This document shows positions 1 through 64,000 of a DNA stretch of 64,000 bases, piece by piece. The notes beneath the pieces were generated by a model. It worked only from the letters and a program-made list of their open reading frames with translations. It had not been told where the DNA came from and did no database searches. Numbering within the stretch: the stretch's first letter is position 1; each line of letters begins with the position of its first letter. Both the position numbers and the translations under genes were made by a program. This DNA comes from a virus. The stretch lies in IMG/VR virus record IMGVR_UViG_3300023301_000006, positions 1-64,000 of that record, one strand, 5' to 3'.

Positions 1-117
1 TGGTGTAATAGTTATGATTTATATACTAAATACACAAAACCACTAGAACCGTATTTAGAAAAATACCACAGGGAGATGATATTAAATGAAAGTACAATCA
101 ACAGTAAGACCTGATAA
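1..117 (+). CDS. C-terminal end of an upstream protein (partial)
   Basis: An open frame enters from the left edge and runs through a TGA at 112-114, read as Trp, to TAA at 115-117. Only 38 residues are visible, beginning W-C-N-S-Y-D, and they show no family signature. It overlaps the next start by 32 bases. Its position just before an XkdX-like gene suggests the end of a tail fibre or baseplate protein, which is inference from gene order only. Confidence 0.4.
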
Positions 118-325
118 AATTGAAATATTAGGCAATAAAGTATTAATAAGAAGTAATATTGTTGAAACAGAAAAAGTTGAAGAGAATGGCGATATTCAAA
201 TTATATTTGAGTATGACGAAGTAGTTTATGCAAAAGATGAATATATAAGAATGATAAGTATTAAGAATTCGGAAACAGAAGAAGTTGTAGACCAAATACT
301 ATTAAACGATTTAATGGGGGTGTAA
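86..325 (+). CDS. Small hypothetical protein of the tail module
   Basis: A 79-residue acidic, beta-rich protein (starts MKVQSTVRPDK, ends LLNDLMGV). GGGAG lies about 10 bases before the ATG. I do not recognise a family. It sits between the end of a probable tail protein and an XkdX-like gene, where Gram-positive siphophages and myophages commonly carry small accessory tail proteins. TAA stop; the next gene starts two bases later, so the two are probably translated together. Confidence 0.6.
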   Translation: MKVQSTVRPDKIEILGNKVLIRSNIVETEKVEENGDIQIIFEYDEVVYAKDEYIRMISIKNSETEEVVDQILLNDLMGV

Positions 326-326
326 C

Positions 327-449
327 ATGTTCGAATATCTTAAAAGATTATACGATGCTGACAGATTAGATGAGCAAGGATTGCAAAAGGCTTTAGATAG
401 AGGTTGGATAACGCAGGAAGAATTTAACAATATTACTAGTGTCCAATAA
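327..449 (+). CDS. XkdX-like short tail-module protein
   Basis: A 40-residue protein (MFEYLKRLYDADRLD...). It ends in the pattern that typifies XkdX-family proteins: a short helix followed by G-W-I-T-x-E-E-F-x-x-I-T. XkdX homologues lie directly downstream of tail fibre/baseplate genes in many Bacillota phages; their function is unknown. The GGGGGTG ribosome site is inside the end of the previous gene. The small size fits the family. The assignment rests on this motif and gene order. Confidence 0.55.
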   Translation: MFEYLKRLYDADRLDEQGLQKALDRGWITQEEFNNITSVQ

Positions 450-484
450 AGGGGATTCACAAAGTTTATCCACTCTTTCCTAGT

Positions 485-513
485 TTGACTTTCGCCTCAA
501 AATATGATATAAT
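485..513 (+). promoter_or_regulatory. Promoter for the lysis-side operon
   Basis: TTGACT, a 17-base spacer and TATAAT, with the extended -10 TG one base upstream. It lies 25 bases before the gene at 538 and probably drives the lysis genes. Confidence 0.75.
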
Positions 514-537
514 AGGTATAAGGATATGGAGGTAAAA

Positions 538-1209
538 ATGGAAAACACAGTACTCATAACAGTAATTGTGACTCCTGTCATAGCCTTTTTCCTAAAGGTT
601 CTTTATCAAGAATATTTATTCTTTAGGAATAAAAATGAGAGACCAACAACAGTGTTGAAAAAACATGAGTTGTTGAATTCTTATTTCGACAATCGGTTAA
701 ATTTTATAAATAACATATGAAATATTTCTGATAAGGGTAGACAGACTGTTGTAAGAATTGCGATGACAGCTTATTTGGAGATTTGGAGAGAACATTTATT
801 GGAGTTAGCAAAGGAGGTAGACGAGTCACACAAACGAGAAAAAGAATGTGCAGACCTATACCAAATAAACATGAAGGCTTTTAATACATCGATAGAAGAG
901 TACACTCATTTCTATCAGAATAATAATTTCTCAAAGGAGGAAAATGAAATATTTGAGATTTTTATGGATAAGTTTCAATCTTATCATCTAAGCAACATCA
1001 AATCAATAGAGGGGTTTGTATTTAGAATATGTATGAATAAGTTAATAACAAATTGTGTAGAAATACAGTATATGATATTCTCAAATTACTTAAGTGCATT
1101 TGATATTACTTTCATGGACATGAATGATACTGTCTCAAAGTTAAATGGAGAACTTACTGGGAAAATTATTAATGACATAAAAATAGGAGAATTAAAGGAG
1201 GTGTATTAA
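538..1209 (+). CDS. Membrane-anchored coiled-coil protein (lysis region)
   Basis: A 223-residue protein with an N-terminal membrane segment (about residues 4-22, ENTVLITVIVTPVIAFFLKV). A charged, largely helical domain follows. The frame runs through a TGA at 718-720 (N-N-I-W-N-I-S). I chose the ATG at 538 over the one at 526 because GGAGGT lies just upstream of 538 and the earlier ATG is part of that ribosome site. Its last codons (K-E-V-Y) overlap the start of the next gene (TAATG). The function is not recognised. Its position before holin- and lysin-type genes suggests a role in lysis or at the envelope. Confidence 0.6.
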
Positions 1210-1460
1210 TGAATAACTTTTGGACAAATGGATTTAGTATTGAAGAAACAAAATTTTCTACTCTAGTTCTTGTTTTATTCGTAGCATTCATTTATGTAAT
1301 ATATGCAGATGTTGCTAATGGGTATATTTACACTGATAAGATATTCGATGTTATCAAGTGGTTGATAGCAGGAATAGCAGGTATTAATGGATTACGTGTC
1401 TTGGGAGATTTGAGCGACAATACAAGCCATGACGAAAAAGAATATGATATTAGAGGATAA
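1209..1460 (+). CDS. Small two-segment membrane protein, holin-like
   Basis: An 83-residue protein with two hydrophobic stretches (about residues 17-35 and 48-66) and a charged tail. This is the general layout of small phage holins, which open the membrane for the lysin at the end of infection. It overlaps the upstream gene by one base and directly precedes the lysin gene. No family-specific motif was seen, so holin is a guess from size, topology and context. A second holin candidate lies at 5075. Confidence 0.4.
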   Translation: MNNFWTNGFSIEETKFSTLVLVLFVAFIYVIYADVANGYIYTDKIFDVIKWLIAGIAGINGLRVLGDLSDNTSHDEKEYDIRG

Positions 1461-1485
1461 AAAAAACATAATTATACTTGAATTT

Positions 1486-1527
1486 GCCCTTAAATTACAT
1501 TTGTAATATAAAATATAGTTTAAGGGT
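1486..1527 (+). promoter_or_regulatory. Stem-loop in the leader of the lysin gene
   Basis: GCCCTTAAA (1486-1494) pairs with TTTAAGGGT (1519-1527), and a second hairpin (ATTACA/TGTAAT) is nested inside. It is not followed by a T run, so it looks more like an mRNA structure in the 130-base leader than a terminator. Confidence 0.45.
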
Positions 1528-1593
1528 ATATTTATATCAAGAAAATAAAAGTAGTTTAGAACGAGATTTCATAAAAAGGGGTGATTGGGAAAA

Positions 1594-4236
1594 GTGAATA
1601 AAAATTTTGATGTATTCGAAAAGTTAAACATACATGAATGACATAGGGCAGGGTATACTGGAAAAGGTGTAAGAATAATGGAGTTAGAAGGTGCAAATCC
1701 ATTAAACCCTCAATTCGATAATATGTTGATAAATGACTTCGACGATGGTCTAGAAAAGGGAGACTTAAATAATTCCCACGGAAGCAAGGTTTTTGATGTT
1801 ATTCATCAAGTGTGTCCAGACTCAAAGTTGTTCGTAGGTAGCTCTTCTACTTCTGACATAATTAGTAAAACAGTACCCTACATTGATAAAAACGACATTC
1901 ATTTAGTCGGAGCTAGTCTAGGGGGATTTGATAGAGAAAAAGTTAATATAAAAATAAGGGAGCTCAAGGAAAAGGGTGTGGCTTTCTTTACTAGCGTTGG
2001 AAACACTGGAGATAGAGGAGCTGGTGAGTTTGCTAAAAGCGAAGAATGAATAAATACTGGTGCTGTTCATTTAAAGAAAGGTAAGCCTTACAGACCTTCT
2101 TACTCATCTATAGACGAAGTGTTAGACTTTACATGTTATTCCAATATTTACATTGAGTCAGATAAAAAAGATGGATACTGATTTAAACAACAAGGAACAA
2201 GTTTTTCCAATCCACTTCTAATGGCTATGGCAGGACTTATAAATCAGAAAGCATTAGAAGAAATTGGTAGAGTACTATGTCAGAGTGAAATTGAAGGTAT
2301 ATTCAAAGATAATGTTATGGACTTAGGAAAGGTCGGACGAGATGAATACTACGGACATGGATTGGTTATATTACCAAACCCAAAAGACTTAAAACTATCG
2401 AATTATGTAATGGGCAACAAGAAAGAAAAGACATCAAAGACAAATATGAAAGAACAGAGTAAAGTAGGAGGTACGGACATGAATTTTAAAAATAAGTATA
2501 ATATTAGATATGATTTATTAAGAGAAGGAAGTAAAAGAAGAAGTGGTAAAAGTGCTAGTAAAATAGGTTTTATAGTAGCCCATGATACAGGGAATAAAAA
2601 CTCTACAGCTGCTAATAATGTAGCTTTCTATAAAAGGAGAAATAAAGACGACTACGCTTCTGCACACACTTTCATAGACGATAAAGAAATAATAGAAATC
2701 ATACCAGCAACCAAAGGAAGAACTGAAAAGGCTTGGCATGTAAGATATAATACACCCACAGATAATTTAGCTTACGATAATGAGGCAAATGACTCAGCTA
2801 TTGGAGTAGAATTATGTTATGGTGACAATATTAATTTTCAGAAAGCCTATGATAGGTATATATGGTATATAACTTATCTTACTATACTATATGACTTAAA
2901 TCCTTATATAGACATAACGGGACACTTCTTATTAGACTCAACAAGAAAAACAGACCCAGTTAATGCTTTAAGGTTCGGTGGCAAAACTTGGAAGGAATTT
3001 CTATTGGATGTAATAAGCTTATACGAACAATATAAAGACACTTCAATCGAATTAAAAGATGAAGAGAAAATAGAAGTAAAAGTAAGTAATAACTACAAAC
3101 CAAATTTAAAAGTTGGAATGAGTTCTGAATATGTTACACTCTTAGAGAATGCTCTTATACAATTAGGGTACTTTACAGAAAAGCAATATTTAGACCAATA
3201 CTATGGAACTTACACTGAAAAAATCGTAAGGGAGTTCCAGACAGCAGAGGGAATTGAGATTGATGGTAGAGCAGGTCCTCAAACTTGAGCCACTATACAA
3301 AAAGCTATTGATAGAAAGAAAAAAGGCTCTTCTGTAGACTTCTTAAAAGAGAAGATGAACGGTGGCGAAGTAGTTATAATGGAGAAAATGTTAGACTTCG
3401 TTGGCTATAATTTAGGCAGTTATAAAGATGACTATTTTGGTTGGGTTACTACAAAGGCTTTAAAGAAATTCCAAGAAGATAACAACTTAGATGTAGATGG
3501 AATTTATGGCATAAATACTAAAAAGGCTTTAGAAGAAGCTTATATTAAAAAAAAAGAACAACCAGTAGTAGCTAGTGCCTATAGAAAAATTAGAATGTAT
3601 GATAGTGATATCCATATCTATAAAACGCAACCACAAGACAAAGTTAGAGTAGAAATAGGCAATCCAGGAGTGTTAGAGAAACTAAGTAATATATTTAATC
3701 CAGCAAAGGCAAAGATAAATGCAGGATTTTTCGGTGGCGGGAAAGAACACCTAGGAATGTTAATTAGAGAGGGACTTTATTATTATCCTCCTACTAGCAA
3801 CTTCATAGATTTTATCTATTACAAAAATGGTAAAACACAAATAAAGAACCTTGATGGATACGATGGTGCTTTATTAAGTAGTTTTCAGAATGAAGCACAT
3901 TGGGCGATTGGAACAAGCTGGTCCTTAATTCAAGAAGGAGAAGTCAATTTAGAAAACGCTGACAAAATATCTCATTCTGGTTGGAGAAATCCAAGAACAT
4001 TCTTCGGACAAAATAAAGATGGGACGTTTACGTTATGCGTAATAGACGGCAGGAAAATAGCAACTAAAGGAGTTACTGCAAAGCAAGAGGCTGAGATAGC
4101 TAAGCACTTGGGACTCTGGAACGCAGTCAACCTAGACGGTGGCGGTTCATCGGTAATGATAGTTGCTGGAAAGATAATGAATAACCCTTCTGATAAAGAT
4201 GAAAGGTTAATTGGTTCGGCAATAGTAGTAAAGTAG
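1594..4236 (+). CDS. Fused subtilase - amidase - PG-binding - phosphodiester glycosidase lysin
   Basis: One uninterrupted frame of 880 residues once TGA codons at 1639, 2047, 2179 and 3286 are read as Trp. Domains in order: a subtilisin-like protease (about 1-260; G-Y-T-G-K-G-V, N-S-H-G-S, G-T-S-F-S-N-P, with Glu where the catalytic Asp is expected); an amidase_2/PGRP-like domain (about 310-470; I-V-A-H-D-T-G, later G-H-F-L-L-D); two peptidoglycan-binding repeats, the first ending G-P-Q-T-W; and a C-terminal phosphodiester-glycosidase (NAGPA-like) domain with N-L-D-G-G-G-S-S. Start GTG after AAGGGGTGAT. An internal AGGAGG (2466-2471) before an in-frame ATG at 2479 could also give the lysin without the protease. 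Likely role: degrading surface protein and peptidoglycan at lysis. Confidence 0.8.
2466..2481 (+). promoter_or_regulatory. Internal ribosome site and start inside the fused lysin
   Basis: AGGAGG, 7 bases, ATG, in the same frame as the surrounding gene and located between the protease and amidase domains. It would yield a 585-residue amidase/PG-binding/glycosidase protein on its own. Confidence 0.55.
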
Positions 4237-4243
4237 GTGTAAA

Positions 4244-5053
4244 ATGAAAGATGTTTATGATTTAAGCAACGCTGGAATATGAGCTTCAAAAGGATACAAA
4301 GGTCAAGGGACACATGTTGTAGTTCTAGATGATGAAGGAGACGCAACCCCTTGAATGAATCAAGTCAAAACAATTGGTACAATCCCAGGAGTCTTTTCGC
4401 ACAACACAAAAGTAAGTTTAGTTGTAAAAAAAATGGCTCCACTATGTAGAGTAACTATGATTAATTTCATTGGTGAAAACAGCAATAGGATTCAGGCTTT
4501 AGAATGGTTAAAGAAAAACAAAGAAGACATTGACTTAATAAACATGAGCTTTTCATTGAGTCGTGCACAAGAAGGCTACCGACAGATTCTAAGATTGGGA
4601 ATTCCCATGATATGTTCTGCAGGCAATCAAAGTCTTGAGTACGTGAGGTATCCTGCTTCTGATTATCAAACCGTTGCAGTAGGAGCATTTGATAGGACTA
4701 CAGGAGAAATAAAAGATTACAGTAACATTGGTCGGAAACTAGATTGTGTTGGATTTACAGATATTAGCGTACAAAGGAATGTATCTGGGTTTATGTATTC
4801 AGTACGAGGCACTTCTGCCTCAGCTCCCTATGTGACAGGAATAATAGCTATATACATGAGTTTCCTTAAGTCTAAGGGTGTGTATAAAAAAATGAACTAC
4901 CGTGAAGTGAAACGATTCTTAAAAAACATCAGTGTCGATTTAGGCTCTACAGGAAAGGATGTTAGAACAGGGTCTGGTTTAATAAAGTTACCCAAAGAAA
5001 TTAAATTACACAATCCTTGTTGGACTTGATGGAATAAATTAAAAAGTTTATAA
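4244..5053 (+). CDS. Subtilisin-like serine protease
   Basis: A 269-residue S8 protease. The catalytic signatures are present: V-V-V-L-D-D-E-G (Asp), F-S-H-N-T-K-V (His, in a diverged G-H-G-T motif) and R-G-T-S-A-S-A-P (Ser). The oxyanion-region sequence C-S-A-G-N is also seen. Three TGA codons (4280, 4352, 5027) are read as Trp; the first gives A-G-I-W-A-S-K-G-Y-K-G-Q-G, the normal start of the subtilase core. No signal peptide is visible, so release probably depends on the holin. It follows the fused lysin by seven bases. The two protease domains are clearly diverged from each other, not a recent duplication. Confidence 0.8.
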
Positions 5054-5486: not shown

Positions 5487-6061
5487 ATTGCCTTAATTCC
5501 TGCTTCTTCTTCCAATGCTATCACTAAATCAAGGAGGGTGTCAGAGCTTCCCCTATGGTATTTTATCTTAACAGAGGCACTTGACGTTAATAAATTAGTT
5601 TTTTTATCGTCGACGAGAATTCCTCCACTCATGTCTATAAGCTCCTTGGTGTTTTCAAATGGGTCCAATTGAAGTCCTATAATCTGACTAATGAAAGGTA
5701 AATTAGTTCTACACCATTTTGTTTTCTTAGAAATATTTCCTTGGGTTCCAATAGTACATATATACAAATCGAATTCTTCGCTTAATCTAGCTAAGTAACC
5801 TCTGTCTTCTTCTGACATTTCTATTCTTTCAAAAAAATCGTCACTTTTATAAAAGGTTTCAATAATGTCTGAGGCTGATTTCTTGTCATTCTCTTCGAAG
5901 ATTACTGGCAACTCTGTCGAGTAATCCCATGAGTTACTTCTAAAAAACATTCTTTGCACCTCTTTATCTAAGTGTCCATAATATTTTCTATACATATCAT
6001 AAATAATCTTATCTGAATTTATAATAACATTGTCGAAGTCTAAGAAAAGTTTTATTTTCAT
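5471..6061 (-). CDS. HAD-family 5'(3')-nucleotidase-like protein
   Basis: A 196-residue protein with the HAD motif I F-L-D-F-D-N-V near the N-terminus, a Thr-containing motif (Y-I-C-T-I-G-T) near residue 100 and the acidic motif I-L-V-D-D-K-K-T near residue 150. This resembles the deoxyribonucleotidase/NagD-like proteins found in many phages, which dephosphorylate nucleoside monophosphates. It overlaps the permease stop by one base and is the last gene of the reverse-strand nucleotide operon. The exact substrate cannot be read from the sequence. Confidence 0.65.
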   Translation of the reverse strand: MKIKLFLDFDNVIINSDKIIYDMYRKYYGHLDKEVQRMFFRSNSWDYSTELPVIFEENDKKSASDIIETFYKSDDFFERIEMSEEDRGYLARLSEEFDLYICTIGTQGNISKKTKWCRTNLPFISQIIGLQLDPFENTKELIDMSGGILVDDKKTNLLTSSASVKIKYHRGSSDTLLDLVIALEEEAGIKAIKKTS

Positions 6062-7188
6062 TAAATCGCCAATTTCTTAATCGCCATGTAACTAACTACA
6101 GAAGTGATAAATGACACTGTAATCGGTGATACAACTACTAAATTTCTACTAAGAATAAAAGCCAACAATGATAGTGCTGTTACTATTGCCTTTGTCTTAT
6201 TGAATTTAATATCCATTAAAGTTGTTGCTCCTAGATTAATGAATAAGAATAATAATAGGGCTCCGTATATTGGAAATGGAACTCTGGATAAAGAATTAGC
6301 TATAATTGGGACAAAAGCCATAACTATAAATATTAACGCTGTGTATATCTGAGCTGTTGGATGTAAATCCCTCTCTCCAATACTCTTTAAGAAACCATTA
6401 TTTTCAGAATAAGATACCGTTGGTACTCCGAAAAATGATGAGAATATATTTGCCGTTCCTATCCCAAAGAATACACAAGACCAACTCATATCTTCTCCTA
6501 ATTCAACTTCGTTTATCATTGCTGTCGCTGAAACATCTCCAAACACTTCTCCTATAACAGATATCGAAATTAAACTGATTGCAGTAAAAGCAGTGATTGA
6601 AACATGAGGAACTGTAAGGAATATAGAACCTGTGTCCATTGGAGCCACTCACATTCCCGCATAATATGTTCCTGCTCCCATTAATAGTAATGACAACGGC
6701 AATGCGTAATCTTTAACCTTTGGTATAAATGATAGTGTTAATAAAATACCTATTGTTATAAAACCAATTTGCGAGTTCGCCATACTCCAACCAATTGGAA
6801 TTAACAGTAAAGATATATATACAACTGATAATTTAAATATAAACTTGGGAACTCTGTTTAATAGGTTGGGGAATTTTTTAAGTATGGCTCCAACTCCTAG
6901 ATATATTAAACCTATTCCTAACACTCCAAACCCTACATATTCGTTCCCCAGTGTCTGAGATATCAATAACATACCACCAATGTATGAGGCTGATACACCC
7001 AATACACTAGATAGTTTATTTTTTGTAAAGATGTGAAAAATCAATGTTGACAATCCAACTGCCAAAAAGGCATTACTGGGAGTCACACCAACTGTTGCCG
7101 CAACGAATAAAATACTGGTTAAAGCTACTGCCATGTGCTCAAGCCCCATTGCAAAGTGCTTAATATGTCTCTTAAATATGCTTACCAT
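6061..7188 (-). CDS. NCS2-type nucleobase (uracil/xanthine) permease
   Basis: A 375-residue polytopic membrane protein with about a dozen hydrophobic segments, starting with the family-typical stretch H-F-A-M-G-L-E-H-M-A. The frame crosses a TGA at 6649-6651 (Y-Y-A-G-M-W-V-A-P); without the reassigned codon it would be two half-proteins. Family members import uracil, xanthine or related bases by proton symport. A GGAGGG ribosome site precedes the ATG. It sits between a deoxyribosyltransferase-like gene and a nucleotidase, consistent with base salvage for phage DNA synthesis. A transporter of this class is uncommon on a phage. Confidence 0.75.
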
Positions 7189-7731: not shown

Positions 7732-8268
7732 TTAAATACTACTATTCTCTATGTCAAATACTATGTCTGCTGAACTTGCGTCCTCCCCCCATTGATATTC
7801 ATTCAATTGTTCAATAGCATGTACTCCTATCAATATTGCGTCACTTTCATCATTCGTTACTTTTATATTAAATCTATCCAACACGTATTTTTTTGAAGCT
7901 CTCTTTTTTTCAGTTCTTCCTTTACCTTTAATGCTTGAAGAACTCCTCCATTGAGAAGCTGTAACAACTAAAAACTGTATGTTGTTTTCATATAGTCAAG
8001 TTACTAATACATATAGTAGTCCAGATAATTTCTTATGTGTCGCTGCATTCCTCATATAGTAAACATCTTCAACTACTACTGCATCAATATCGTATTCCTC
8101 AACTATTTCTATCATTCATTTTTTTATTCCGGCAATCTTCTCTACGTACTTATTTCCATCCACTTTCATTTTCCCGTAATCTAACATCGATGCTTTACCA
8201 TCTTTGTAATTAAATACGGCAAACCCACTTGTGGTTGCTTGGTCTAAGGCTAAAATGTTTAATTCAAT
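7732..8268 (-). CDS. RuvC-like Holliday-junction resolvase
   Basis: A 178-residue RNase H-fold protein. The first strand carries L-A-L-D-Q-A-T-T-S-G-F, the second acidic site V-V-V-E-D and the C-terminal pair E-S-D-A, the RuvC-type carboxylates that bind two Mg2+ ions. TGA at 8116 (K-K-W-M-I-E) and 7996 (V-T-W-L-Y) is read as Trp. No ATG, GTG or TTG lies in frame near the ribosome site. AAGGAG is followed after 8 bases by ATT, which I take as the start. The start overlaps the region of the thymidine kinase stop. Role: resolving branched DNA before packaging. Confidence 0.75.
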
Positions 8269-15619: not shown

Positions 15620-18600
15620 TTAACTATGTTTCTCACTTCTCATTTCTAATTTTCCATCGTCTGTTATTTTTTCAATTAAGTAAACTAAACTTTGCTTTGT
15701 CCTGGAATAATCTTTCCCCCTAAAAGTGGTTTCGCTCGACCTATATCCAGTAATCATAATTTTGTTGCCCCTACTAAAAAAACTACTATCTATAATAGAG
15801 CTATTCTTTTTGACTTGTCTATCGTAGTACGCAAAATCAGAACCTTTAAACTTTACAGTAACGACTCCACTCCTAGTTAATATTTGAGTCATATGTTTAT
15901 TCTTATTTCTGCTAAGGCAAGTTCCAATTATCGTTGATAAGTGAAATACTGGGTACTTGTCTTTCCAATAAAACTTCACAGGTTTTATTTTTAAGTCTTT
16001 AAATTTATCCACGAATGGATAATATTCATAGTCTATATAGTCTAATTCATTGTCTGTGGCATAATAGGATATAGAATCCATTTCCCATTTACCTATTGTT
16101 CCTTCAGTATAGTGGGACGCTTCTTCCACTATTATGATTTTATTGTACTCTTTTAAAAGTTCTTTTTCATTCTCTTTAATAAATTTTCTTAACTTATCTG
16201 CATCTTTCTCATAAGTAGACTCGAAAACTGATGACTCTACTAAATATTTGTCTTTCTTGTAAACAACTTTTAACTCTGGGTGTTCTACATTTAAAAATTC
16301 AATCATCATTTCTTGTAATGGAAAATATTTTTTGTCATCTACCTTTATTTCTTCGTTTGAACGTAGTATTTTTCTTAAGTACCACATTATTGAGCTATTC
16401 TTAACTTTTGTATTACTAAAAAATTTAGCATCAAATAGTCCAGCCATATTCCTTAAAGACAAGGAAGTTTTTACCTTTGCTTTTCCAGCAATATAATCCA
16501 TTAATAATTCTCTTCTGTCTTTTTCTTCAATGTTCCTGAAGGCATTTGACTTAATCAAGGATATATTTTTCCTCTTTGACGGTTTTATTCTTTTATAAAA
16601 GTCTCCATAGCTAGTGTATGGTCTACTCTCTACTATTTCAGTAACAAGGTCATCACCAACGTAAGACATTCCTTTTAGTCCGAATAATATAACTCCTCCA
16701 TCAAAGTCTGGGGTAAATACATATCCAGATTTATTGATGTCTGGAGGTGCTATTGTTATTCCAACTTGCTCCATATTACTAATTGCCACAGCTACTTTAC
16801 CATAGTTAGAAGATGTGTTCTTATCTCCATCTTGGTCTATTGCACCACTTTCAACTGTTAAACAAGCTGAATTCCAAGCTAAGTCATTATACTCATATGT
16901 TAAGTTTAAAATTTGCAAAGCTATCATAGAATAAGGTAAGGTATGATTCCGACTAAAACTATCATGTTGTTCCCACATTTTTGTGGGCATGGACTAACTC
17001 TTTAAAGTTTAATATCTCTCTAATAAGGTATTAAACTTTATCCACTGTTTGGAGAATAGGAATTTCACCTAAACTCTACTTCCCTTGCGGGAATAGTCTC
17101 TACACTCGCTTTCGCTAGCACGGGATTGTCATATCCATAAATGGACTTAGATTTCCCCGTTAGCACTAAATTAATAGTACACCCTATATTTATAGGTTAA
17201 GTGGAATGGGCAATTTTATTTACCCAAGTTGAGGAACTACACAATGATGCCATACGTAATTTATTATTTCCTCTCTTGCTCCAGTTCTTTCCTTCGCTTT
17301 ATCGAAGTAATCTTCTTTTAACTTATCTATTAATTTAGCTTTCTTCTTTGCTATGGCTTTTCTAGCCTTATGTGCCTCTACAACAGTAAAGCCAGATATG
17401 GATTCGTCCATTAGGATTTCCATAATGTCTTCTTGTGTAGCCGCAATGCCGTAACTTTTATCTAAGTGTTTCTTCATTGTCATTATCTCATCTTCGTTTA
17501 AGCCTTGTAGGTGCATTTCTTCATACCAAAGACTTATATCCTTTCTAAACTTAATAAACTTATCTAATGGTTGAATACTTCCTCCACTAGATGATAATCT
17601 CATTAATGAGTTTGCTGTTGCCATCTCCACCAATGAATGAGGTGCTACTTCTCTTATGGCTTTAGAACCCACCATTGTATCAAATTGGAATAGAGAAACA
17701 ATTTCACCTTTCGCAGCTTTGTCCCACATTTCTAAGTTGTCATACTCAAGGACAGCAGGAGATAAATACTTATCATAAGTCTCCCTTAGTGTTTCTTGTC
17801 TTTCCATCGCACCGTTGGTGATTAAATGATTCATAGTTATTCTAATTTTATCTAGAATCTTTACAGTTAAGAAGTCAAATTTGACTCCTCCCATATACAT
17901 CTTTATCCTATGTTTCCACAGGGACGGACTATTTCATGTTCTATTTTAAAATAGAACTCTTGCACTTCGACTGGGACAATATCCAGTCTACGCCTCTCGG
18001 CTAGTCTCTACATCTTTCTCTTGCTTCAATAATAGTTTTTATAAAGTTCTGAGGTTTTAAAAGCCCTATAAAGTTGGGAATGCCCCTTTAAATTTAAGTC
18101 TCTTAGGACTAAAGTTACTGAGTCATATACCTCAACTAGATTCCAATTGATATCATATTTGTAAACTTTTTTAGAACTTGTTGCACCGACATCAACTTTA
18201 CCAATATTAGAACCAACAACTCCTTTTTTAGATTCACTTATTTTTTATTGTTATTTACACTATTATTAAAACTTAAGACTTGACACGAGATTGCCATATT
18301 GCCGAAGCAACTTAGGTTTCCTCGTTAGCTTAACCCCTTTAATAAGGATTAAACACCCTTTTTGTCGTAAGGTTCACAAAATTTACTATAACTCTCACAA
18401 GTTATAGGGACTATATAATTAATCCGAATCTGACATGTCAAACTGAGTTGTAGGAACATCACTCGGAGACATCATCAAAGCATTCCTTTTATAATAAGGT
18501 TCATTATATATATAGATACCAGAGGCATGTATGCTTCTCTTGTCTATAATTCCCTCGAATGCTAATATCGTCTCCTGTAATTTTTTATCTTCATATTCTT

Positions 18601-20233
18601 CCAACTTAGACAAAAACTCTTGTTGAACTCCTCTTTCCTTTTCTCTATTGCCGAATATAACGTCTGCCAATGGTCAGTTAGCACCCCTCTCTTCTGGAAC
18701 CAATCCAGTTAAATATAATGCTTCTGACTCCTCGATACCTAAACCACGACAAGCAGATGTTATACTACTCCTAGAGCCAATTGTTCCAAAGGTGGCTATG
18801 TTTAATACTCTATCTTCTCCAAACTCTACATTTAAAGCCTTAAGTATTTGACCTCTCTGTGACTTTTGTGAGTCCAAGTCAATGTCCATAATGTCTGGTC
18901 TGTCTTTGTGGAGAAACCTCCACCAAGGAATGTCCCATTTTAAAGGGTTTATTTGTATTATGTCTATCAAGTAATTTATTAATAATCCTGTTGCTGAACC
19001 CCTTGAAGGTCCTACAAGACTGTCTCCCTCTTCCCACATTATTTCAACTAATCTCTTTGTTGTCAATAAATAATTAGCCATATTCTTACCAATTCTCTCA
19101 CTCGTTCCTAGTATATGTTCTAATTCTACATCCACTCTTTGTAGTACTTCTTCTGTTGGTTCAATATCTTTTTTACTCTTTATTCCTCTTAACGTATGAT
19201 AAATTAGAGCCTTATCATATCTGTCCTGGCTATTTAAGTATCTAGTAATATATTTGTACCCCTTAAACATTTCTTTTGTCTTAGAGTCAAATTCATGGTC
19301 CTCAACTGGAACTTTGGTTATATCCACTGATTGAGCCAGACTAATATTCTGACATTGCTCTCCTATAATCAATGTATTTCTAAAGCATTCGTCTATTTCT
19401 TCTTCTGGAATGTGATTGTGCATTATTTCCTTTATTTCTTTTTCTGACATCATATAGGTAAAACCATAAAAGGCATCGACCTCTCTCTCTCCTTCTTGAG
19501 ATTGTAAAAAAGCTCTGTGAATACTTCTATCTTCTTTTGACAGATAATGGGAGTCAGTAGTTATTATACTCTTAATGTCTTTCGAATCCCCTATTGATTT
19601 TATCATTCTATTCACCATAGTTTGTTCTTCTGATGTTGATGGTTGTAATTCAAAAAAGAAGTTGTCTTTCTCAAAAGCATTGATACACCATTCGATAAAC
19701 TTCTTAATCCTATCTTGAGCTACTGATTTTTCTATCTCACCATTATACATCCCCATTAAAGTATTAGGCAGAAAACCACCTAAACAAGCTGTTGTAGCCA
19801 TTAAGTGACCTCTGTTTGTACTAATAATTTCTTCTATTTGGGAATAAGTTATTGGAACTCTTCTCATTCCTCTATCATAGTAAGAATTGGTCCAAGCTTG
19901 AGACGATATCTTTTTTAATTGCTCATAACCGATTTCATCTTTCGCTATTAATATAAAATGATAATACTGTTGATTGTTCCCTAGTGAATCTACTAAATAT
20001 ATTTCGTCTCCAAAAGCCACAGTAAAGTTTTCATCTATAACTCCTTCTTCTACTAATTTGGTTCTATATTTGTCTGCTTTCACATGTGAGCTTAATACCT
20101 CATGGTCTGTTATTGCTAAACCACTTAATCCTAGCTCTATTGCCCTATCTATTAAGTCTGTAACTTTATTTGTAGAGTCTGCTAGTCTTAAGTTAGAATA
20201 ATCTGTATGATTGTGTGAAGAAAAATAATTCAC
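15620..20233 (-). CDS. dnaE: DNA polymerase III alpha (DnaE-type), interrupted by two introns
   Basis: Exons 20233-18422, 17897-17254 and 16973-15620 give 1269 residues in one frame. The N-terminal PHP domain starts F-S-S-H-N-H-T-D-Y-S and has A-I-T-D-H. The palm carries G-P-S-R-G-S-A-T-G and D-I-M-D-I-D-L-D, the catalytic Asp residues of C-family polymerases. Finger-domain sequence T-Q-F-D-M-S-D-S-D joins Y-M-G-G-V-K-F-D-F-L across intron 1, and I-N-Y-V joins E-Q-H-D-S-F-S across intron 2. A TGA at 18674 is read as Trp (G-A-N-W-P-L). This is the phage replicase. No beta-clamp gene is seen in the window, so it may use the host clamp. Confidence 0.85.
16974..17253 (-). ncRNA. Group I intron 2 of the polymerase gene (280 nt)
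   Basis: Exon end AATTACGT pairs over all 8 bases with guide GTGTAGTT; the intron ends in G after a CCCACA...TGTGGG hairpin. The P4-P6 signature (AACGGGGAAA ... CAATCCCGTGC on the reverse strand) and a P7 strand TTAGTCC are present. No ORF. Confidence 0.85.
17898..18421 (-). ncRNA. Group I intron 1 of the polymerase gene (524 nt)
   Basis: Core elements AACGAGGAAA ... CAATCTCGTG and P7 strand AAATAGTCC are present. The guide pairing I can find is short (GGAT with GTCC), so the exact 5' boundary is less certain than for the other introns. The extra length is a homing-endonuclease remnant at 18008-18241. Confidence 0.75.
18008..18241 (-). pseudogene. Remnant of a homing endonuclease (NUMOD1-like segment)
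   Basis: An open stretch inside the polymerase intron reads K-K-V-Y-K-Y-D-I-N-W-N-L-V-E-V-Y-D-S-V and later Y-K-N-Y-Y-W-S-K-R, with TGA as Trp. This resembles the NUMOD1 DNA-binding module found at the end of HNH and GIY-YIG intron endonucleases. No nuclease domain and no good start codon are present, so I read it as a decayed homing endonuclease. Confidence 0.55.
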
Positions 20234-20313: not shown

Positions 20314-22056
20314 TTAAAAAACGAAAGAACTACTTGCTTTTATCTCACACTCATCTACGATAATTTGAGGGACAACCTTACCATTTCACTCATTCGTGTT
20401 CGGCTTACCTATTAAACTAATTTCAAGGGAGTTACCATTTGGTATATTTGCAATTATTTCCTCTGCTCTAAACATTATATACTCAACACCATTAAAAATA
20501 ATCTTTATAATATTAGATTTCTTTCCGATTAGTTGTAGCTCTGATGCGTCTATTTTAATATTAGATACCATAATCTTAGGCTCTCTCAATCTAGTTCCCC
20601 AAAGGTGTTTCATATCATTTAATTTAAAGATGTACTCGCTACTTACTTCAGTGGAGTCCATTAAGAAGTCTATGCTAAATACTTTTTCAAAATCATAGTC
20701 TTTTAATAGGTTGTTACTTAGCTCTATTAATGGTTTTATATTTTCTGGTTTTATACAAGTTCCGAAAGCTGCTTGATGACCTTCTGCGTATTCTACTAAA
20801 CCAGTATTGTTTAAGTACTTCTTAAATTCATTTAGTTTTGTTCCAGAGGGGCATCTACCACTACCATAAAATAAACCGTCTTCTTCATTCTTTAAAAGTA
20901 TTAAAGTTGGTCTATTATACTTGTCTTGTATTTTATTGGCAACTAGTCCAGTCATAGACCGCTCAATTATATTAGTCGCATTTAAGATTATAACTTTATT
21001 TCCTAATTGGTCTTTCTCAACTAACTGTGTTAATTTTTTCATACCATTAGTTTCTGCCTTCTTTTGTCTTATCTTAATATTACCTGCCATTCTAGCCATT
21101 TCCTTTTCAATGAATACTAGTTGTCCTTTGTTGTTTCTACCAGAACCTATTACCTTACTACCGTCTAGTATAAATGCTTTAAACATCATAATCTTCTCTT
21201 GCATATTTCCAAGTCTAATGACAGCATTTATCAATGGAGCTATATAGAACATTATGTCTATTGGATAAACATTGTCACCCAAAGAGTAGCTCTTTTTCTT
21301 TATTAATGCCTTGATGAATAAGTTTCCTTCAATATCATCATTCATTAATTTTACGCCTCTTCTGACTATTACAATATTATCTCTCAACCTCATGTCCATA
21401 TTATCTGAGGCTATCCCTAATGCTGCTAAATCTACTAACTGTTCTGAGAAATTAATACTATTTACATCATCTAGTGCTTGACAAAATTTAAACGCAACTC
21501 CAGCTCCACTTAAGAATTTATTGTTGTAGTCTGGAGATAATTGGTTGTTAACCACCATTGCATATTCAGATTCTTTACTTGCTTCATGGTGGTCTAGTAC
21601 AATAATACTTGTACCAGCGTCTGAGAGTTCTTTATGCTTTTTATATTGACTACTACCCGCATCTGGAATTATTACTAAGTCATATTCTTTCATCTTTTCA
21701 AGCTCTTCTCCATCTGGTAGTCCTACTTCTTTGTTTTCGTGTATAAAAAAGTCCATATCAGTAAGATTATAAACCTTATATAAATACTTTCATATGATAG
21801 ATGCTGAGGTATAACCATCAACGTCACTATCTACTACTATCATTACTTTTTTGTCACCTTGGCTAAGTTGTTCATCTAAGAACACAGATGTCTCTTTAAG
21901 ATTCTTTAACCTATACTTATCTTCTTCGTAATCTACGCTTGTGTCTTCTCTACTTAAAAATATGTTAATATCATCTGGACTTACTCCTCTTTTTAAAAGT
22001 AAATCCTCTTGAATAGAACTAGAAAGTCCTACTAAATTGTCTAATGAAAATTGCAT
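20314..22056 (-). CDS. recJ: RecJ-like single-strand DNA exonuclease (DHH family)
   Basis: 580 residues through two TGA codons (21790 and 20386). DHH motifs: V-D-S-D-V-D-G-Y-T-S-A (I), I-I-P-D-A-G-S (II), L-D-H-H-E-A (III) and D-L-A-A-L-G-I-A-S-D-N (IV). The DHHA1-type region has G-S-G-R-C. The end reads N-E-W-N-G-K-V-V-P-Q-I-I-V, the OB-domain tail in which Trp comes from TGA; without reassignment the protein would lose this end and its first 88 residues. It is a Mn2+-dependent 5'-3' exonuclease in recombination and repair, placed between the primase and the polymerase. Confidence 0.82.
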
Positions 22057-22080: not shown

Positions 22081-22290
22081 TTAACATTGGAAAAATTCCA
22101 ATGGATATATTCAGTCAATACTTTCTTCTGGAATGTTGAATTCTAACCCTTGTGCTTCGTAAACATTTTGCCCAGTAAATAGGTAGTCTTCCGCAACACC
22201 TACTCACACAAAATGGAAGCTTTTACCATCCATTTCTACCATAGATTTAGATAGCCCTTTAGTGATTTTTGGTCTATAAATTCCCTTCAT
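22081..22290 (-). CDS. Small hypothetical protein between primase and RecJ
   Basis: 69 residues, beginning MKGIYRPKITKGLSK, hidden from standard-code annotation by two TGA codons (22204, 22111) that give F-V-W-V-G and I-D-W-I-Y-P. TAA stop. No family recognised. Short beta-rich proteins at this position in replication operons are often accessory factors; that is inference. Confidence 0.6.
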
Positions 22291-39227: not shown

Positions 39228-39235
39228 CCAAATAT

Positions 39236-39418: not shown

Positions 39419-39424
39419 CCAACA

Positions 39425-45099: not shown

Positions 45100-45136
45100 A
45101 CAAAAAAAATAAGACCCAAGTTTCTAGGTCTTAGAG
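45100..45136 (-). terminator. Terminator of the reverse-strand operon
   Basis: On the reverse strand AAGACC/GGGTCTT hairpin followed by a T run, just past the stop at 45140. Confidence 0.8.
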
Positions 45137-45139
45137 GAA

Positions 45140-46453
45140 TCAGTTTTGTTTATGTGTTTTCTCTTCTACACAATACTCGCAGACATTATCTACCATCTCT
45201 TCTGAAAGGACAAATTCAGCACATTCTTCACAGCAAGAGTATTCTCTTGAGCACCTATTACAAACCCAAGTATCGTATCCAGTGAAGTGTGCACTATCTA
45301 CATGCTCTGTAACACCACAATCTTCACAATATATGAAATTCTCATTGAAACAAATTTCACATACGTTGCCCTCTTCTGTCGCATATATGTTTTCACTGTG
45401 ATGGAAGTCTCCACAATAAGCACACTCTTCTCCTTCCCTATAACAATTACACAAATCAACACTACCGCAACTTGGACAAGAGTAATCTTCAATTTGTCTT
45501 AAACCTGCGATGTATTCGTTGTCTGCCCTAAACTTTACATTAAGGACAGTAGAATCAACATAAGCATGGGTAAAATAATAATTATCAAGTGTCTGTTTAG
45601 TTGTTATCTCCCCATCTGCTAGCTCTTGAATCTTTTCTTTGATTTTTTCATTAAAGAATTTATTCTCAAAAGGGTAATTCTTTTTTAAGTCTACTGAAAC
45701 TACAGGGTCGTTGTCATTAAATGACTGAGTGGAAGTGACAAAAATTAAAGAACGCCATTTCTTATTATCAACTGCTCCAAGATAAGGCTTTGATGATTTA
45801 GTGTAGGCTACTGCTATCGAAGGACTGTTTAGATACTCTATTAATCCTAATTTATAACTGTGTTCTGAGTCTGTAGACATACAACTTCTCCAATTATTTG
45901 TATTACTACTCATGGATATGATATCTTCCAATTTTGTACTAATGTATATTGTCTCTTTCCCTTGTAAGTTTTGTATGAGCATAGAATACTCTTTCAAAAA
46001 AAACGTTGCAACTTCATCGTTTAAATAGGTTTTAAAAATCTTACTAATCACCTTTGTAATTTTCATACCTTTTTGGAATTTTAAATCCCTATACTCTTTT
46101 TTTTCTTCAAGTCTATTATTCTTTATATACTTGAAAATACCCACTGATGAATTAATTCCAGAATCTTTAACAAACTGGTACATGTGCTCTACGACTAGAT
46201 AAGATAGTTTAATCTTATTACTAAAATTCAACACCTTGGAGAAAGTACTTAATAGCTTATCAGAGGTATCTTCCCTACTTTCAGAGTGTTCTACCTCGAA
46301 TGAAATCTTTTCTTTTCCGCCCAACAGGAACTTACGTATTGTCTTCTTCTTTTCGTCCCATTCCTCGTACATTTCTTCAATAAAAAGTCTTGCAAAGTCA
46401 ACGTTCTCATAAATCTTACCTAATTGTACTGACATGAAATCAATTTTATCCAT
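45140..46453 (-). CDS. Member 3 of the three-copy zinc-ribbon family
   Basis: 437 residues, the longest copy. Shared block N-T-N-N-W-R-S-C-M-S, then P-S-I-A-V-A-Y-T and N-K-K-W-R-S-L-I-F-V. The C-terminus has about ten C-x-x-C-like pairs (C-P-S-C, C-A-Y-C, C-E-I-C, C-E-D-C, C-N-R-C, C-E-E-C, C-E-Y-C), a large zinc-finger array. Function unknown. A GGGAGG ribosome site precedes the ATG. Located 13 kb from the other two copies. Confidence 0.65.
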   Translation of the reverse strand: MDKIDFMSVQLGKIYENVDFARLFIEEMYEEWDEKKKTIRKFLLGGKEKISFEVEHSESREDTSDKLLSTFSKVLNFSNKIKLSYLVVEHMYQFVKDSGINSSVGIFKYIKNNRLEEKKEYRDLKFQKGMKITKVISKIFKTYLNDEVATFFLKEYSMLIQNLQGKETIYISTKLEDIISMSSNTNNWRSCMSTDSEHSYKLGLIEYLNSPSIAVAYTKSSKPYLGAVDNKKWRSLIFVTSTQSFNDNDPVVSVDLKKNYPFENKFFNEKIKEKIQELADGEITTKQTLDNYYFTHAYVDSTVLNVKFRADNEYIAGLRQIEDYSCPSCGSVDLCNCYREGEECAYCGDFHHSENIYATEEGNVCEICFNENFIYCEDCGVTEHVDSAHFTGYDTWVCNRCSREYSCCEECAEFVLSEEMVDNVCEYCVEEKTHKQN

Positions 46454-52119: not shown

Positions 52120-52398
52120 TTATACCTCCCCGTATATTGGTTTTAATAGTGAAATGGCATCTATTTCAATTATCTTATAATTTTGACGATAGTGACTAAT
52201 AAAGCTATCTGCTTCTCAGGAAGAACTGGTCTCCCAAATATATCCTTCCCCCATCAAAAATAATGTACTATGCTCAATAGTGCGAAGTGACTTTACCAAT
52301 GGACCATCGAAACTCCAGCGGAGTTTTTTGTCAATTGCATATGACTCAAACAACTTAAGTATTTCTTTAGTTCTTATTGATACCACATAGTAATTCAC
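52120..52398 (-). CDS. Family C small protein, with one TGA codon
   Basis: 92 residues. GTG start at 52398, six bases after AAGGAGG; TGA at 52216 read as Trp (S-S-S-W-E-A-D). Aligns end to end with the products at 56388 and 56674 (I-R-x-K ... I-I-E-I-D-A-I-S-L-L-K-P-I-Y-G-E-V). Under the standard code it would be called truncated. Confidence 0.65.
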
Positions 52399-52399
52399 T

Positions 52400-52687
52400 T
52401 TATACCTCCTTATATAAAAAGATTGCTTCCCATATGTCCTCAAAGTTTAGTGTGATATCATCTTTTATGTCCAAATTTTCAATTTTATCATATGACACAC
52501 GAAGTTTATCTAAACGGACTTTATAATATAAAGGATACATATATTCAGGAGGAAGCCACTCTGGCAAAAAATCCCCATCTTGCCAACGGTAACCTAACTT
52601 ATTCAATGCTTTACTTACATCAATTACATCTGGTTGATTTTCTAATATAACGCAAAATTCATCTGGTAATCCTTTTCTCAATATCAT
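52400..52687 (-). CDS. Family B small protein
   Basis: 95 residues: V-S-K-A-L-N-K-L-G-Y-R-W-Q-D-G, W-L-P-P-E-Y; closest to the copy at 55101. Ends F-L-Y-K-E-V, coded by TATAAGGAGGTATAA, which is also the ribosome site of the next gene. Confidence 0.65.
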   Translation of the reverse strand: MILRKGLPDEFCVILENQPDVIDVSKALNKLGYRWQDGDFLPEWLPPEYMYPLYYKVRLDKLRVSYDKIENLDIKDDITLNFEDIWEAIFLYKEV

Positions 52688-57218: not shown

Positions 57219-57494
57219 CTACACCTCCTTGTAAATGTAAATAAAATCTTTTATATATTTAATGCCTAACTCTTTCACTTCATTTCCTCTTTTTTTCTCA
57301 TATCCAAGAGAATCATCATAGTTCTCCACAAGCCAGATAGAGTTATTTTCTATTATTACTCCTTGACAAGGGTAATTAATTAGTGCGTTTTCGTTTCCTG
57401 CGTGTTCTCAGACGTAATCCTTTACTTTTGAAAAAATATAGAACATGTGTTTCTCAGAAAGATTAGTTAATCTAATTAAATCTATGGAACTCAT
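57219..57494 (-). CDS. Small hypothetical protein with TGA codon and common tail
   Basis: 91 residues, starts S-S-I-D-L-I-R-L-T-N-L, TGA at 57408 read as Trp (D-Y-V-W-E-H-A), ends I-Y-I-Y-K-E-V then TAG. Missed under the standard code. Stop and next ATG are one base apart. Confidence 0.6.
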
Positions 57495-62460: not shown

Positions 62461-62520
62461 AGAGAAAACGCCACTCCCCATAAACCCTTCTATAGCCTCA
62501 TCTATTGGGGTTTCAATAAT

Positions 62521-62625
62521 TAGTTAAACGGAAAATATAACTAGTTAAACGGAAAATATAACTAGTTAAACGGAAAATATAACTAGTTAAACGGAAAATA
62601 TAACTAGTTAAACGGAAAATATAAC
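62521..62625. repeat. Five 21-bp iterons
   Basis: Five perfect head-to-tail copies of a 21-base unit (TAGTTAAACG then GAAAATATAA then C) beginning at 62521, 62542, 62563, 62584 and 62605, with a degenerate sixth (TTATTCGGAAAAC). A 21-base period is two helical turns, as in Rep-binding iterons. Confidence 0.92.
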
Positions 62626-62642
62626 TTATTCGGAAAACGCAC

Positions 62643-62671
62643 TTGACAAATTCCGTATGTTGTGATACAAT
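62643..62671 (+). promoter_or_regulatory. rep: Promoter of the rep gene
   Basis: TTGACA, 17 bases, TACAAT, extended -10 TGA, right beside the iterons, so Rep bound there could repress its own gene. Confidence 0.85.
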
Positions 62672-62690
62672 ATAAATAGGAGATGATAAT

Positions 62691-63410
62691 ATGAACAACT
62701 TAGATGTAGTCAAGCACGGTAGCTTGATAGACGCAACGTCAGAGAAACCCTTTTCACAATTTGAACAACAGTTTATAGCAGAGGCACTGTCAAAGATTTC
62801 TATGGAGGACAATGAACTGAAGGATACGGAGATAGACGTAGATGAACTTTACGAAGAGTGTTTTGGAGGTGTTCCGTCAGGGGTCACTAAGAAAAAGGCT
62901 TATGGAGCCCTAGAGGGATTGACAGAGAAAAAGATAACGATACATGTAAATGGACTAAAAAGGAAAGAGAGAGCATCATTCTCGTGGCTCAGCTTGTTCG
63001 TATATGACAAAGTTACAGGCAAGGCTACAGCCCATATTAACAAAGATGCAGCAATATATTTGTTGAATCTTGACGATAATTTCACAAAGATAAAAAGGGA
63101 GATATACATGCTAATGAGTAATACTTATGGTACAAGACTCTTAGAACTCATGAGTAAGGTATATGGTGCTGTGAATGAGAGACTCTTTACAATAGAAGAA
63201 TTGAGAAAACTGCTTCATGTGGGGGACAGGTATCCGAGTAACTACGACCTTAAGAGATATGTAATAGAGCCAGCCATCGAAGGAGTGAATGAACTAGCAG
63301 ACTTTGTATTAAGTTATGAACAGATTAAAACAAAAAGGAGAATATCACACTTCAAATTTACAAAGCACAAGAAGAAAGATTTAGATGAGCACAAGCCTAT
63401 AGAGTTTTAA
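62691..63410 (+). CDS. rep: Rep_3-like plasmid replication initiator
   Basis: 239 residues. Two winged-helix-type halves: N-terminal S-Q-F-E-Q-Q-F-I-A-E-A-L-S-K-I and A-Y-G-A-L-E-G-L-T-E-K-K; central S-F-S-W-L-S-L-F and A-T-A-H-I-N-K; then N-T-Y-G-T-R-L-L-E-L-M-S-K, F-T-I-E-E-L-R-K-L-L and Y-D-L-K-R-Y-V-I-E-P-A, the typical Rep_3 second domain. Five iterons and an AT-rich tract lie directly upstream. It would start theta replication and control copy number. AGGAGATG ribosome site. Strong evidence that the element can exist as a plasmid. Confidence 0.85.
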   Translation: MNNLDVVKHGSLIDATSEKPFSQFEQQFIAEALSKISMEDNELKDTEIDVDELYEECFGGVPSGVTKKKAYGALEGLTEKKITIHVNGLKRKERASFSWLSLFVYDKVTGKATAHINKDAAIYLLNLDDNFTKIKREIYMLMSNTYGTRLLELMSKVYGAVNERLFTIEELRKLLHVGDRYPSNYDLKRYVIEPAIEGVNELADFVLSYEQIKTKRRISHFKFTKHKKKDLDEHKPIEF

Positions 63411-63495
63411 CAGCTCCATTTGTGTGTATCCACAACGCACCGTAGAAAGGAGGTCCACACCACTTTACACAGCTTAGTAACTACTGCTTTTGTTG

Positions 63496-63521
63496 ACACC
63501 CTACCTTAACAATAAGGGTGT
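63496..63521 (+). terminator. Hairpin after rep
   Basis: ACACCCT/AGGGTGT hairpin followed by ATTTA; a weak terminator. The stretch 63411-63610 has no ORF. It contains GTATCCACA (one base off a DnaA box) and an orphan AAAGGAGG. Confidence 0.5.
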
Positions 63522-63610
63522 ATTTAGCATACAAAGAATACAGTAAAGGTGAATCAAATCCTTACAAGCTCAATGATTTCCTTACAATGCCTCGGAATAG
63601 TTTTGTAAAT

Positions 63611-63638
63611 AAAAAATAACCTCCGTTAAGAGGTTACA
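63611..63638 (-). terminator. Terminator of the gene at 63634
   Basis: On the reverse strand AACCTC/GAGGTT hairpin followed by ATTTTTT. Confidence 0.8.
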
Positions 63639-63873
63639 TAATTCCTAATACTTTAAATACAAAAGATACAACAGCCCCTATAAATAAAATGGGGATTGTG
63701 AACGCCAGAAAGGATATTATATTATCCATCAGTTTGTCAAATACATTCGACCAATTAGTGTTTATAATGAATGCTTCATACATTTCTTCAAAGGCAAAGA
63801 CTATCAACATAGCCAGAGAGCCAATTACAAAAAGTGAAAGAAGAGAATTTAATATGGACTCTATAGCAGCCAT
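63634..63873 (-). CDS. Small membrane protein
   Basis: 79 residues with two long hydrophobic segments (about 8-32 and 49-75). Starts inside the end of the upstream gene. Function unknown. Confidence 0.6.
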   Translation of the reverse strand: MAAIESILNSLLSLFVIGSLAMLIVFAFEEMYEAFIINTNWSNVFDKLMDNIISFLAFTIPILFIGAVVSFVFKVLGIM

Positions 63874-64000
63874 AACATATCAAACCCAAACAAGTGTAAG
63901 ATGAATCCCACTATAAAGCCAATGGACGCAAGACACAACGTAACAATAATTGTACTAAAGAGAGCAAGTATAGTAGCATATAGGAACGTTCCTACCCATT
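63861..64000 (-). CDS. Membrane protein, cut by the window edge (partial)
   Basis: 46 visible residues (V-G-T-F-L-Y-A-T-I-L-A-L-F ... F-I-V-G-F-I-L-H-L-F-G), at least one membrane segment, TAG stop. Overlaps the next start by 13 bases. The N-terminus lies beyond the window. Confidence 0.6.
   Translation of the reverse strand, partial: WVGTFLYATILALFSTIIVTLCLASIGFIVGFILHLFGFDMLWLL

What the first reader, a model, noticed from the sequence alone, without database searches (positions are those of the whole stretch)
1..64000. UGA is read as tryptophan throughout the element
In at least 18 genes the frame runs through TGA (27 codons). Examples are the PG-binding domain (G-P-Q-T-W, 3286), RecJ (N-E-W-N-G, 20386), the Sak4-like ATPase (N-K-W-T, 28158), the subtilase start (A-G-I-W-A-S-K-G-Y-K-G-Q-G, 4280), primase, RuvC, DnaE and the permease. 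At these places the families have Trp. No gene I traced ends in TGA. Early, late and replication genes are all affected, so the whole programme depends on UGA decoding.
Basis: partly seen in the sequence, partly recalled or inferred. Interest (0 to 1): 0.85.

Follow-up and report, generated by a model that had tools for sequence, protein, structure and literature searches.

The report
Phage reads UGA as tryptophan
This phage genome fragment reads the usual stop signal UGA as the amino acid tryptophan, heavily in its cell-lysis and DNA-copying genes but rarely elsewhere, probably with a tRNA that it carries itself; this is a solid new example of a known kind of phage genetic-code switch.

Summary
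In detail: about 27 in-frame TGA codons in 18 genes of the 72.4-kb virus record (26 in 17 genes within the window). The reading as Trp is supported. In a pooled column test W scores 25.0 nats against 2.3 for the next residue. At three TGA sites a 92-98% identical phage has TGG, never another residue. dN/dS is as low after the TGA as before it. In a paralogue family, TGA sits on a Trp column.

"Throughout" and "the whole programme" are not supported. TGA supplies 19 of 55 Trp codons in the lysis and replication cassettes, but 3 of 80 in a 17-kb block of small and NAD genes (heterogeneity p about 1e-4). TGG outnumbers TGA 191 to 27, although AT bias predicts about 70% TGA. No virion genes were found.

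Default ARAGORN and Rfam cut-offs find no UCA tRNA, but a 98-nt Sec-like tRNA(UCA) candidate lies in the tRNA array (39324-39421; about 0.03 expected by chance). A distant relative from a Bacilli MAG with RF2 shows the textbook pattern: 73% TGA in tail genes, 0 of 42 in the DNA/RNA-enzyme block. A new member of the known code-4 phages.

The parts
526..1209 (+). gene with TGA 718 (aa 65)
   Evidence: PHROG phrog_18926 matches 4-214, across the TGA
1585..4236 (+). lysis-type multidomain protein (subtilase, Amidase_2, two PG_binding_1, phosphodiester glycosidase) with TGA 1639, 2047, 2179, 3286
   Evidence: Pfam across the TGAs; subtilase motif 'w..AGYTGKGV' at 1639, 'GPQTw' at 3286
4244..5053 (+). 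second subtilase with TGA 4280, 4352, 5027
   Evidence: Pfam S8; 'Iw..KGYKGQG' parallels TGA 1639 of the neighbouring subtilase
6061..7188 (-). xanthine/uracil permease with TGA 6649
   Evidence: PF00860; UraA alignment runs across the TGA
7732..8187 (-). RuvC-like resolvase with TGA 8116, 7996
   Evidence: PF02075; 8116 column W in 7 of 13 after 80% dereplication
18419..20233 (-). DnaE N-terminal exon with TGA 18674 (aa 520)
   Evidence: W in 102 of 137 homologues; TGA kept in a 96% identical phage
20314..22056 (-). RecJ with TGA 21790, 20386
   Evidence: 20386: W 71 and Y 70 of 149; close relative has TGG there
22081..22290 (-). small ORF with TGA 22204, 22111
   Evidence: close relative has TGG at 22204 and TGA at 22111
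22302..23411 (-). primase with TGA 23034, 22917
   Evidence: 22917: W in 130 of 147; TGG in the close relative
24380..26755 (-). DnaB helicase with intein, TGA 24914
   Evidence: W in 126 of 135; Pfam DnaB + LAGLIDADG
26766..27260 (-). conserved small gene with TGA 27000
   Evidence: phrog_4680 over 1-164, across the TGA; column mixed, not W
27318..28349 (-). Sak4-like ATPase with TGA 28158
   Evidence: W in 120 of 121
29372..30439 (-). Zn-ribbon protein with TGA 29417
   Evidence: C-terminal Cys pair follows the TGA and aligns with paralogue 45131-46453
38825..39145 (+). small gene inside the tRNA array with TGA 38864 (aa 14)
   Evidence: strong Shine-Dalgarno upstream of the ATG, so the TGA is likely read
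45131..46453 (-). gene with TGA 45140, 3 codons before the end (ambiguous: sense or stop)
52120..52443 (-). small paralogue-family gene with TGA 52216
   Evidence: the part after the TGA aligns with the family's C-terminus
57219..57494 (-). small paralogue-family gene with TGA 57408
   Evidence: the TGA sits on the column that is Trp in paralogues with 'YRW/YKW/YSW'
39324..39421 (+). candidate UGA-decoding tRNA, anticodon UCA, 98 nt, Sec-like, encoded CCA, G73
   Evidence: ARAGORN relaxed only; Rfam tRNA-Sec 24 bits, below the 47-bit cut-off; only hit of a strict UCA scan in 72 kb, 0.033 expected; 5 of 3000 shuffles give UCA, none with CCA
36822..39230 (+). tRNA array (15 tRNAs by ARAGORN plus Gly-UCC 38616), none Trp by default settings

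Best explanation
The window is part of a phage with an SPbeta-like replication module that reads UGA as tryptophan. Step 1 (shown by sequence evidence): ribosomes read through UGA in at least 16 genes and Trp is the residue inserted. Step 2 (shown): use of UGA is concentrated in the lysis and replication cassettes and is rare in the 45-62 kb block and in the RNR/DnaE-C block. Step 3 (inferred, about 0.6): decoding is done by a tRNA that the phage supplies during infection, most likely the UCA tRNA at 39324-39421, while the host itself uses UGA as stop; genes needed before that tRNA accumulates are therefore kept almost free of UGA. Step 4 (inferred, about 0.5): in infection UGA thus delays or limits translation of lysis and some replication proteins, as proposed for other recoded phages.
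For: Trp: pooled 10 columns W +25.0 nats, next Y +2.3; TGG control 25 columns W +75.1; eight other codons recover their standard meaning. W at 28158 120/121, 24914 126/135, 22917 130/147, 18674 102/137. Of 7 TGA sites shared with the 92-98% identical contig, 4 are TGA and 3 are TGG, none anything else; dN/dS after the TGA 0.03-0.16, before it 0.03-0.08. Paralogue Trp at 57408. Uneven use: Fisher p = 1.2e-4, Monte Carlo p = 1e-4. UCA tRNA candidate. Walled host: amidase and PG-binding domains, unlike Mollicutes. Distant relative L178: 60/82 TGA in tail genes, 0/42 in the topoisomerase/ligase/RNA-ligase block, in a Bacilli MAG with RF2 and its usual frameshift site. Literature: crAss-like phages with TGA-to-Trp mostly in late genes (PMC7886860).
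Against: The tRNA candidate is structurally odd: D loop without GG, either a non-canonical T loop or a 22-nt insert, z-score only -0.65, below Rfam's cut-off. G1-C72 and the long arm look more like Ser/Sec than Trp tRNA. No phage TrpRS or RF1 was found. The host is unknown. Four of the ten tested columns (7996, 21790, 23034, 27000) do not clearly favour W. TGA-free blocks could reflect module exchange rather than timing. No expression data.
Confidence: 0.7

Rival explanations
1. The host itself uses UGA = Trp genome-wide (code 4, as in Mycoplasmatales) and the phage simply follows it.
For: No clear TGA terminator among 109 genes. No phage TrpRS or RF1 found. The UCA tRNA candidate is weak.
Against: TGG 191 to TGA 27, whereas the fragment's A/G third-position preference is 68-79% A; strong unevenness between blocks. 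Peptidoglycan-degrading enzymes imply a walled host, while the known genome-wide UGA = Trp bacteria in the Codetta screen are Mycoplasmatales/Entomoplasmatales and tiny insect symbionts (PMC8629427). The recoded relative sits in a MAG with RF2.
Confidence: 0.2
2. A standard-code phage in which TGG has mutated to TGA in a few genes (decaying genome or faulty assembly); Trp at the columns is then only the ancestral residue.
For: TGG to TGA is one transition, and pseudogenes are a known cause of false UGA = Trp calls (PMC8629427).
Against: Same TGAs in independent contigs; reading frames intact past the TGA with dN/dS 0.03-0.16; up to four TGA in one long open gene; downstream codon usage coding-like.
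Confidence: 0.03
3. UGA is read only by leaky near-cognate tRNA-Trp(CCA) of the host, giving low yields of full-length protein as a dosage control.
For: UGA use is low and uneven; UGA readthrough by Trp is known in Bacillus (own knowledge); no canonical tRNA(UCA) found.
Against: Replication genes carry one or two TGA and the lysis gene four, so losses would multiply; a UCA tRNA candidate exists.
Confidence: 0.07

Closest known systems
TGA-recoded (code 4) phages, e.g. crAss-like Zeta group (Yutin et al. 2021, PMC7886860)
   Same: TGA at Trp positions; a UCA tRNA (candidate here); uneven use along the genome; introns and inteins in the same genome; TGA also in a DNA polymerase gene
   Different: Replication module of SPbeta type, not crAss-like; low TGA share; heavy use in the replication cassette as well as lysis; virion genes not in the record
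SPbeta-like phages (Bacillus BUCT083, Enterococcus H1, Mammaliicoccus phi127)
   Same: Similar gene order Sak4 - small gene - DnaB - primase - RecJ - DnaE
   Different: They show TGG, Tyr or other residues at the TGA sites and no TGA recoding; DnaE about 42% identical
Phage contig L178 (CANPWX010000001.1, rabbit-gut Bacilli MAG)
   Same: Related replication module, TGA read as sense in RecJ and other genes
   Different: TGA mainly in tail genes (60 of 82 Trp codons); its DnaE, helicase and primase have none
Mycoplasma/Spiroplasma code 4
   Same: UGA = Trp
   Different: There genome-wide in the host and in wall-less cells; here partial and in a phage with peptidoglycan-degrading enzymes

Membership tests
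TGA-to-Trp recoded phage | In-frame TGA in conserved genes at positions where homologues have Trp | tested here: met
TGA-to-Trp recoded phage | TGA not used as terminator | tested here: inconclusive
   no clear TGA stop, but 45140 and 71515 ambiguous
TGA-to-Trp recoded phage | Suppressor tRNA with anticodon UCA | tested here: inconclusive
   one structurally odd candidate, 39324-39421, below Rfam cut-off
TGA-to-Trp recoded phage | Recoding concentrated in late (structural and lysis) genes | tested here: inconclusive
   lysis 8/24 TGA, but replication 11/31 as well; no virion genes found in the record
TGA-to-Trp recoded phage | Host uses standard code | not testable with these tools
   host of the window unknown; only for relative L178 a MAG with RF2
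TGA-to-Trp recoded phage | Phage TrpRS or RF1 (optional; present in some) | tested here: not met
   PF00579 and PF00472 absent from the 72-kb fragment
Phage of a code-4 (Mollicute) host | UGA preferred over UGG in line with AT bias | tested here: not met
   27 TGA to 191 TGG; other NNA/NNG pairs 68-79% A
Phage of a code-4 (Mollicute) host | No peptidoglycan-degrading lysis genes | tested here: not met
   Amidase_2 and PG_binding_1
SPbeta-like replication module | Order Sak4, small gene, DnaB, primase, RecJ, DnaE | tested here: met
Selenocysteine tRNA | Rfam RF01852 at its gathering score | tested here: not met
   24 bits against 47

The most novel reading that the evidence does not exclude
The phage decodes UGA as Trp with a five-armed, 98-nt, selenocysteine-tRNA-like tRNA(UCA), a suppressor architecture that ordinary tRNA finders miss; such divergent tRNAs could explain recoded phages in which no suppressor tRNA is found.
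Probability: 0.25. Interest if true: 0.65.

Novelty: new member of a known kind. Interest (0 to 1): 0.42.

Why it matters
It adds a phage with an SPbeta-like replication module to the UGA = Trp phages, with early-stage use (12% of Trp codons). Among 159 loci of at least 9 kb carrying the same DnaE or RecJ (some loci share a contig), 17 look TAG-recoded and two are TGA-recoded (L014, L178), so the lineage seems to change codes repeatedly. The odd UCA tRNA offers a testable answer to why some recoded phages seem to lack a suppressor tRNA.

Tried and rejected
Coding-density gain alone (0.65 to 0.74 with TGA as sense): rejected as proof, because SPbeta loci without real recoding gain as much (L107, L110, L128). 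UGA = Gly, Ser or Cys: not favoured by the columns. Finding a recoded prophage in bacterial genomes with the window's DnaE alone: no hit. Exact search for the UCA tRNA core in viral contigs: none. Relatives of the lysis gene and of a gene beside the tRNA array in viral contigs: none. The subtilase alignments shown from the PDB cover only the region after TGA 4280 and 4352, so they do not test those sites. A low-scoring UCA tRNA in L178 at 57331 overlaps a coding gene and was dismissed. My first scan for UCA anticodon loops had wrong spacing and found nothing; corrected.
Full report
What was checked. The window is bases 1-64000 of a 72,423-nt IMG/VR virus record without end repeats, most likely a fragment. 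Gene calling with TGA as sense gives 109 genes. Of 33 in-frame TGA, 6 are artefacts of over-long starts or doubtful ends; 27 in 18 genes remain, 26 of them in 17 genes of the window.

Are the TGAs really read? Where a coding-like ORF meets TGA, the continuation has the codon usage of coding DNA in 15 of 19 cases. The exceptions are 6350 (a shadow frame) and 45140, 63902 and 71515, where only 2-3 codons remain. A contig from another sample (IMGVR 3300001097_000063, about 99-100% identical) keeps the TGAs it covers. A second contig (3300012147_000823; L004/L014), 92-98% identical, aligns at seven TGA sites: four are TGA, three are TGG. dN/dS is 0.03-0.16 after the TGA and 0.03-0.08 before it. 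So the part after the TGA is under purifying selection as protein.

Which residue? With TGA as X, homologues from up to 150 loci give W in 120/121 (Sak4, 28158), 126/135 (DnaB, 24914), 130/147 (primase, 22917), 102/137 (DnaE, 18674), and 71 W with 70 Y of 149 (RecJ, 20386). Pooled over 10 columns after removing sequences more than 80% alike, W scores 25.0 nats and the next residue, Y, 2.3. The same test on TGG, TGT, TAT, GGA, CAA, AAA, GAA, TTA and AGA returns the standard residue each time. Four columns are variable and do not clearly favour W. Inside the fragment, a family of small paralogues at 51-59 kb has Trp in 'Y[RKS]W' where the gene at 57219-57494 has TGA. The two subtilases both have TGA just before 'GYTGKG/GYKGQG', where subtilases often have Trp (own knowledge).

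Distribution. TGA / all Trp codons by block: lysis 1-5.5 kb 8/24; 5.5-13 kb 3/32; 13-18 kb 0/14; replication 18-30.5 kb 11/31; 30.4-36 kb 0/6; 36-45 kb 1/17; 45-62 kb 3/80; 62-72 kb 1/14. Left against right, Fisher p = 1.2e-4; over all blocks, Monte Carlo p = 1e-4. The blocks were drawn by me after seeing the gene map, so these p-values are somewhat optimistic. If UGA and UGG were free to drift, AT bias (68-79% A in other A/G pairs) predicts about 70% TGA; the observed share is 12%. The 45-62 kb block holds NAD/NMN genes, phosphoesterases and many small unknown genes; that it is expressed early is an inference. No capsid, portal or terminase was found among the proteins tested; the terminase matches of the DnaB gene fall largely on its intein.

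Who reads UGA? ARAGORN at default settings finds no Trp or UCA tRNA among 15. With relaxed settings a 98-nt tRNA(UCA) appears at 39324-39421, at the end of the tRNA array: 7-bp acceptor, G73, encoded CCA, 5-bp anticodon stem, loop CUUCAAA. Rfam's best match is tRNA-Sec, 24 bits, below the 47-bit cut-off. It is the only hit of a UCA scan asking for paired acceptor, paired anticodon stem and CCA in the record (0.033 expected); 5 of 3000 shuffles of the local region give a UCA tRNA-like structure and none ends in CCA. The scan was adjusted so that it admits this candidate's spacing, so its expectation is a guide, not a test. The fold is not more stable than shuffles (z = -0.65) and its D and T loops are abnormal. 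I treat it as a candidate. TrpRS and RF1 are absent from the fragment.

A distant relative. Contig L178 (CANPWX010000001.1, 73 kb, rabbit-gut Bacilli MAG), DnaE about 40% identical, has 60 TGA to 22 TGG in a block with tail-fibre and other late genes and 0 to 42 in a block with topoisomerase, DNA ligase and RNA ligase; its DnaE, helicase and primase have none. Its MAG has prfB with the usual frameshift site at UGA, so UGA is stop in that bacterium, if the phage contig is binned correctly.

Known context. TGA-to-Trp phages with or without a detectable suppressor tRNA, mostly with late-gene use, are described for crAss-like phages (PMC7886860). Code-4 phages that encode suppressor tRNA, RF1 or TrpRS are summarised in PMC10746230. 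Genome-wide UGA = Trp in bacteria is limited in the Codetta screen to Mycoplasmatales/Entomoplasmatales and insect symbionts (PMC8629427); a later paper adds a Patescibacteriota family and an endosymbiont (PMC13092985). The finding is therefore a new, well-supported member of a known kind.

Noticed in passing
36166-36726 (+): ROOL RNA, 293 bits, directly upstream of the tRNA array.
   Followed up: no
36746-36814 (+): 69-nt RNA with the 5' and 3' ends of a tmRNA (44.8 bits, just below cut-off), G3-U70 pair and CCA, but without a tag-coding part; perhaps a tmRNA decoy. Relative L178 has a full-length tmRNA match (L198:9873-10291, 56.4 bits).
   Followed up: partly
39236-39318 (+): tRNA-Trp(CCA)-like sequence with a long D region, missed by ARAGORN, directly before the UCA candidate.
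   Followed up: partly
12538-12809 and 13026-13291 (-): Two group I introns in or beside the anaerobic ribonucleotide reductase gene.
   Followed up: no
15620-20233 (-): DnaE is split into three exons (18419-20233, 17220-17900, 15620-16990).
   Followed up: partly
24380-26755 (-): DnaB helicase with a LAGLIDADG intein that resembles sequences inside large terminases in PHROGs.
   Followed up: no
7732-8270 (-): RuvC reading frame is open upstream of its first ATG ('NILALDQATTSGFAVFNYKDGK'); probably a non-standard start codon.
   Followed up: no
L048, L050, L062, L065, L066, L087, L114, L132, L145, L146, L151, L158, L162, L172, L177, L185, L190: Related replication modules that look TAG-recoded (code 15) by coding density.
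   Followed up: partly
L178 / L195-L198: Another TGA-recoded phage contig, with 73% TGA among the Trp codons of its tail-gene block.
   Followed up: yes
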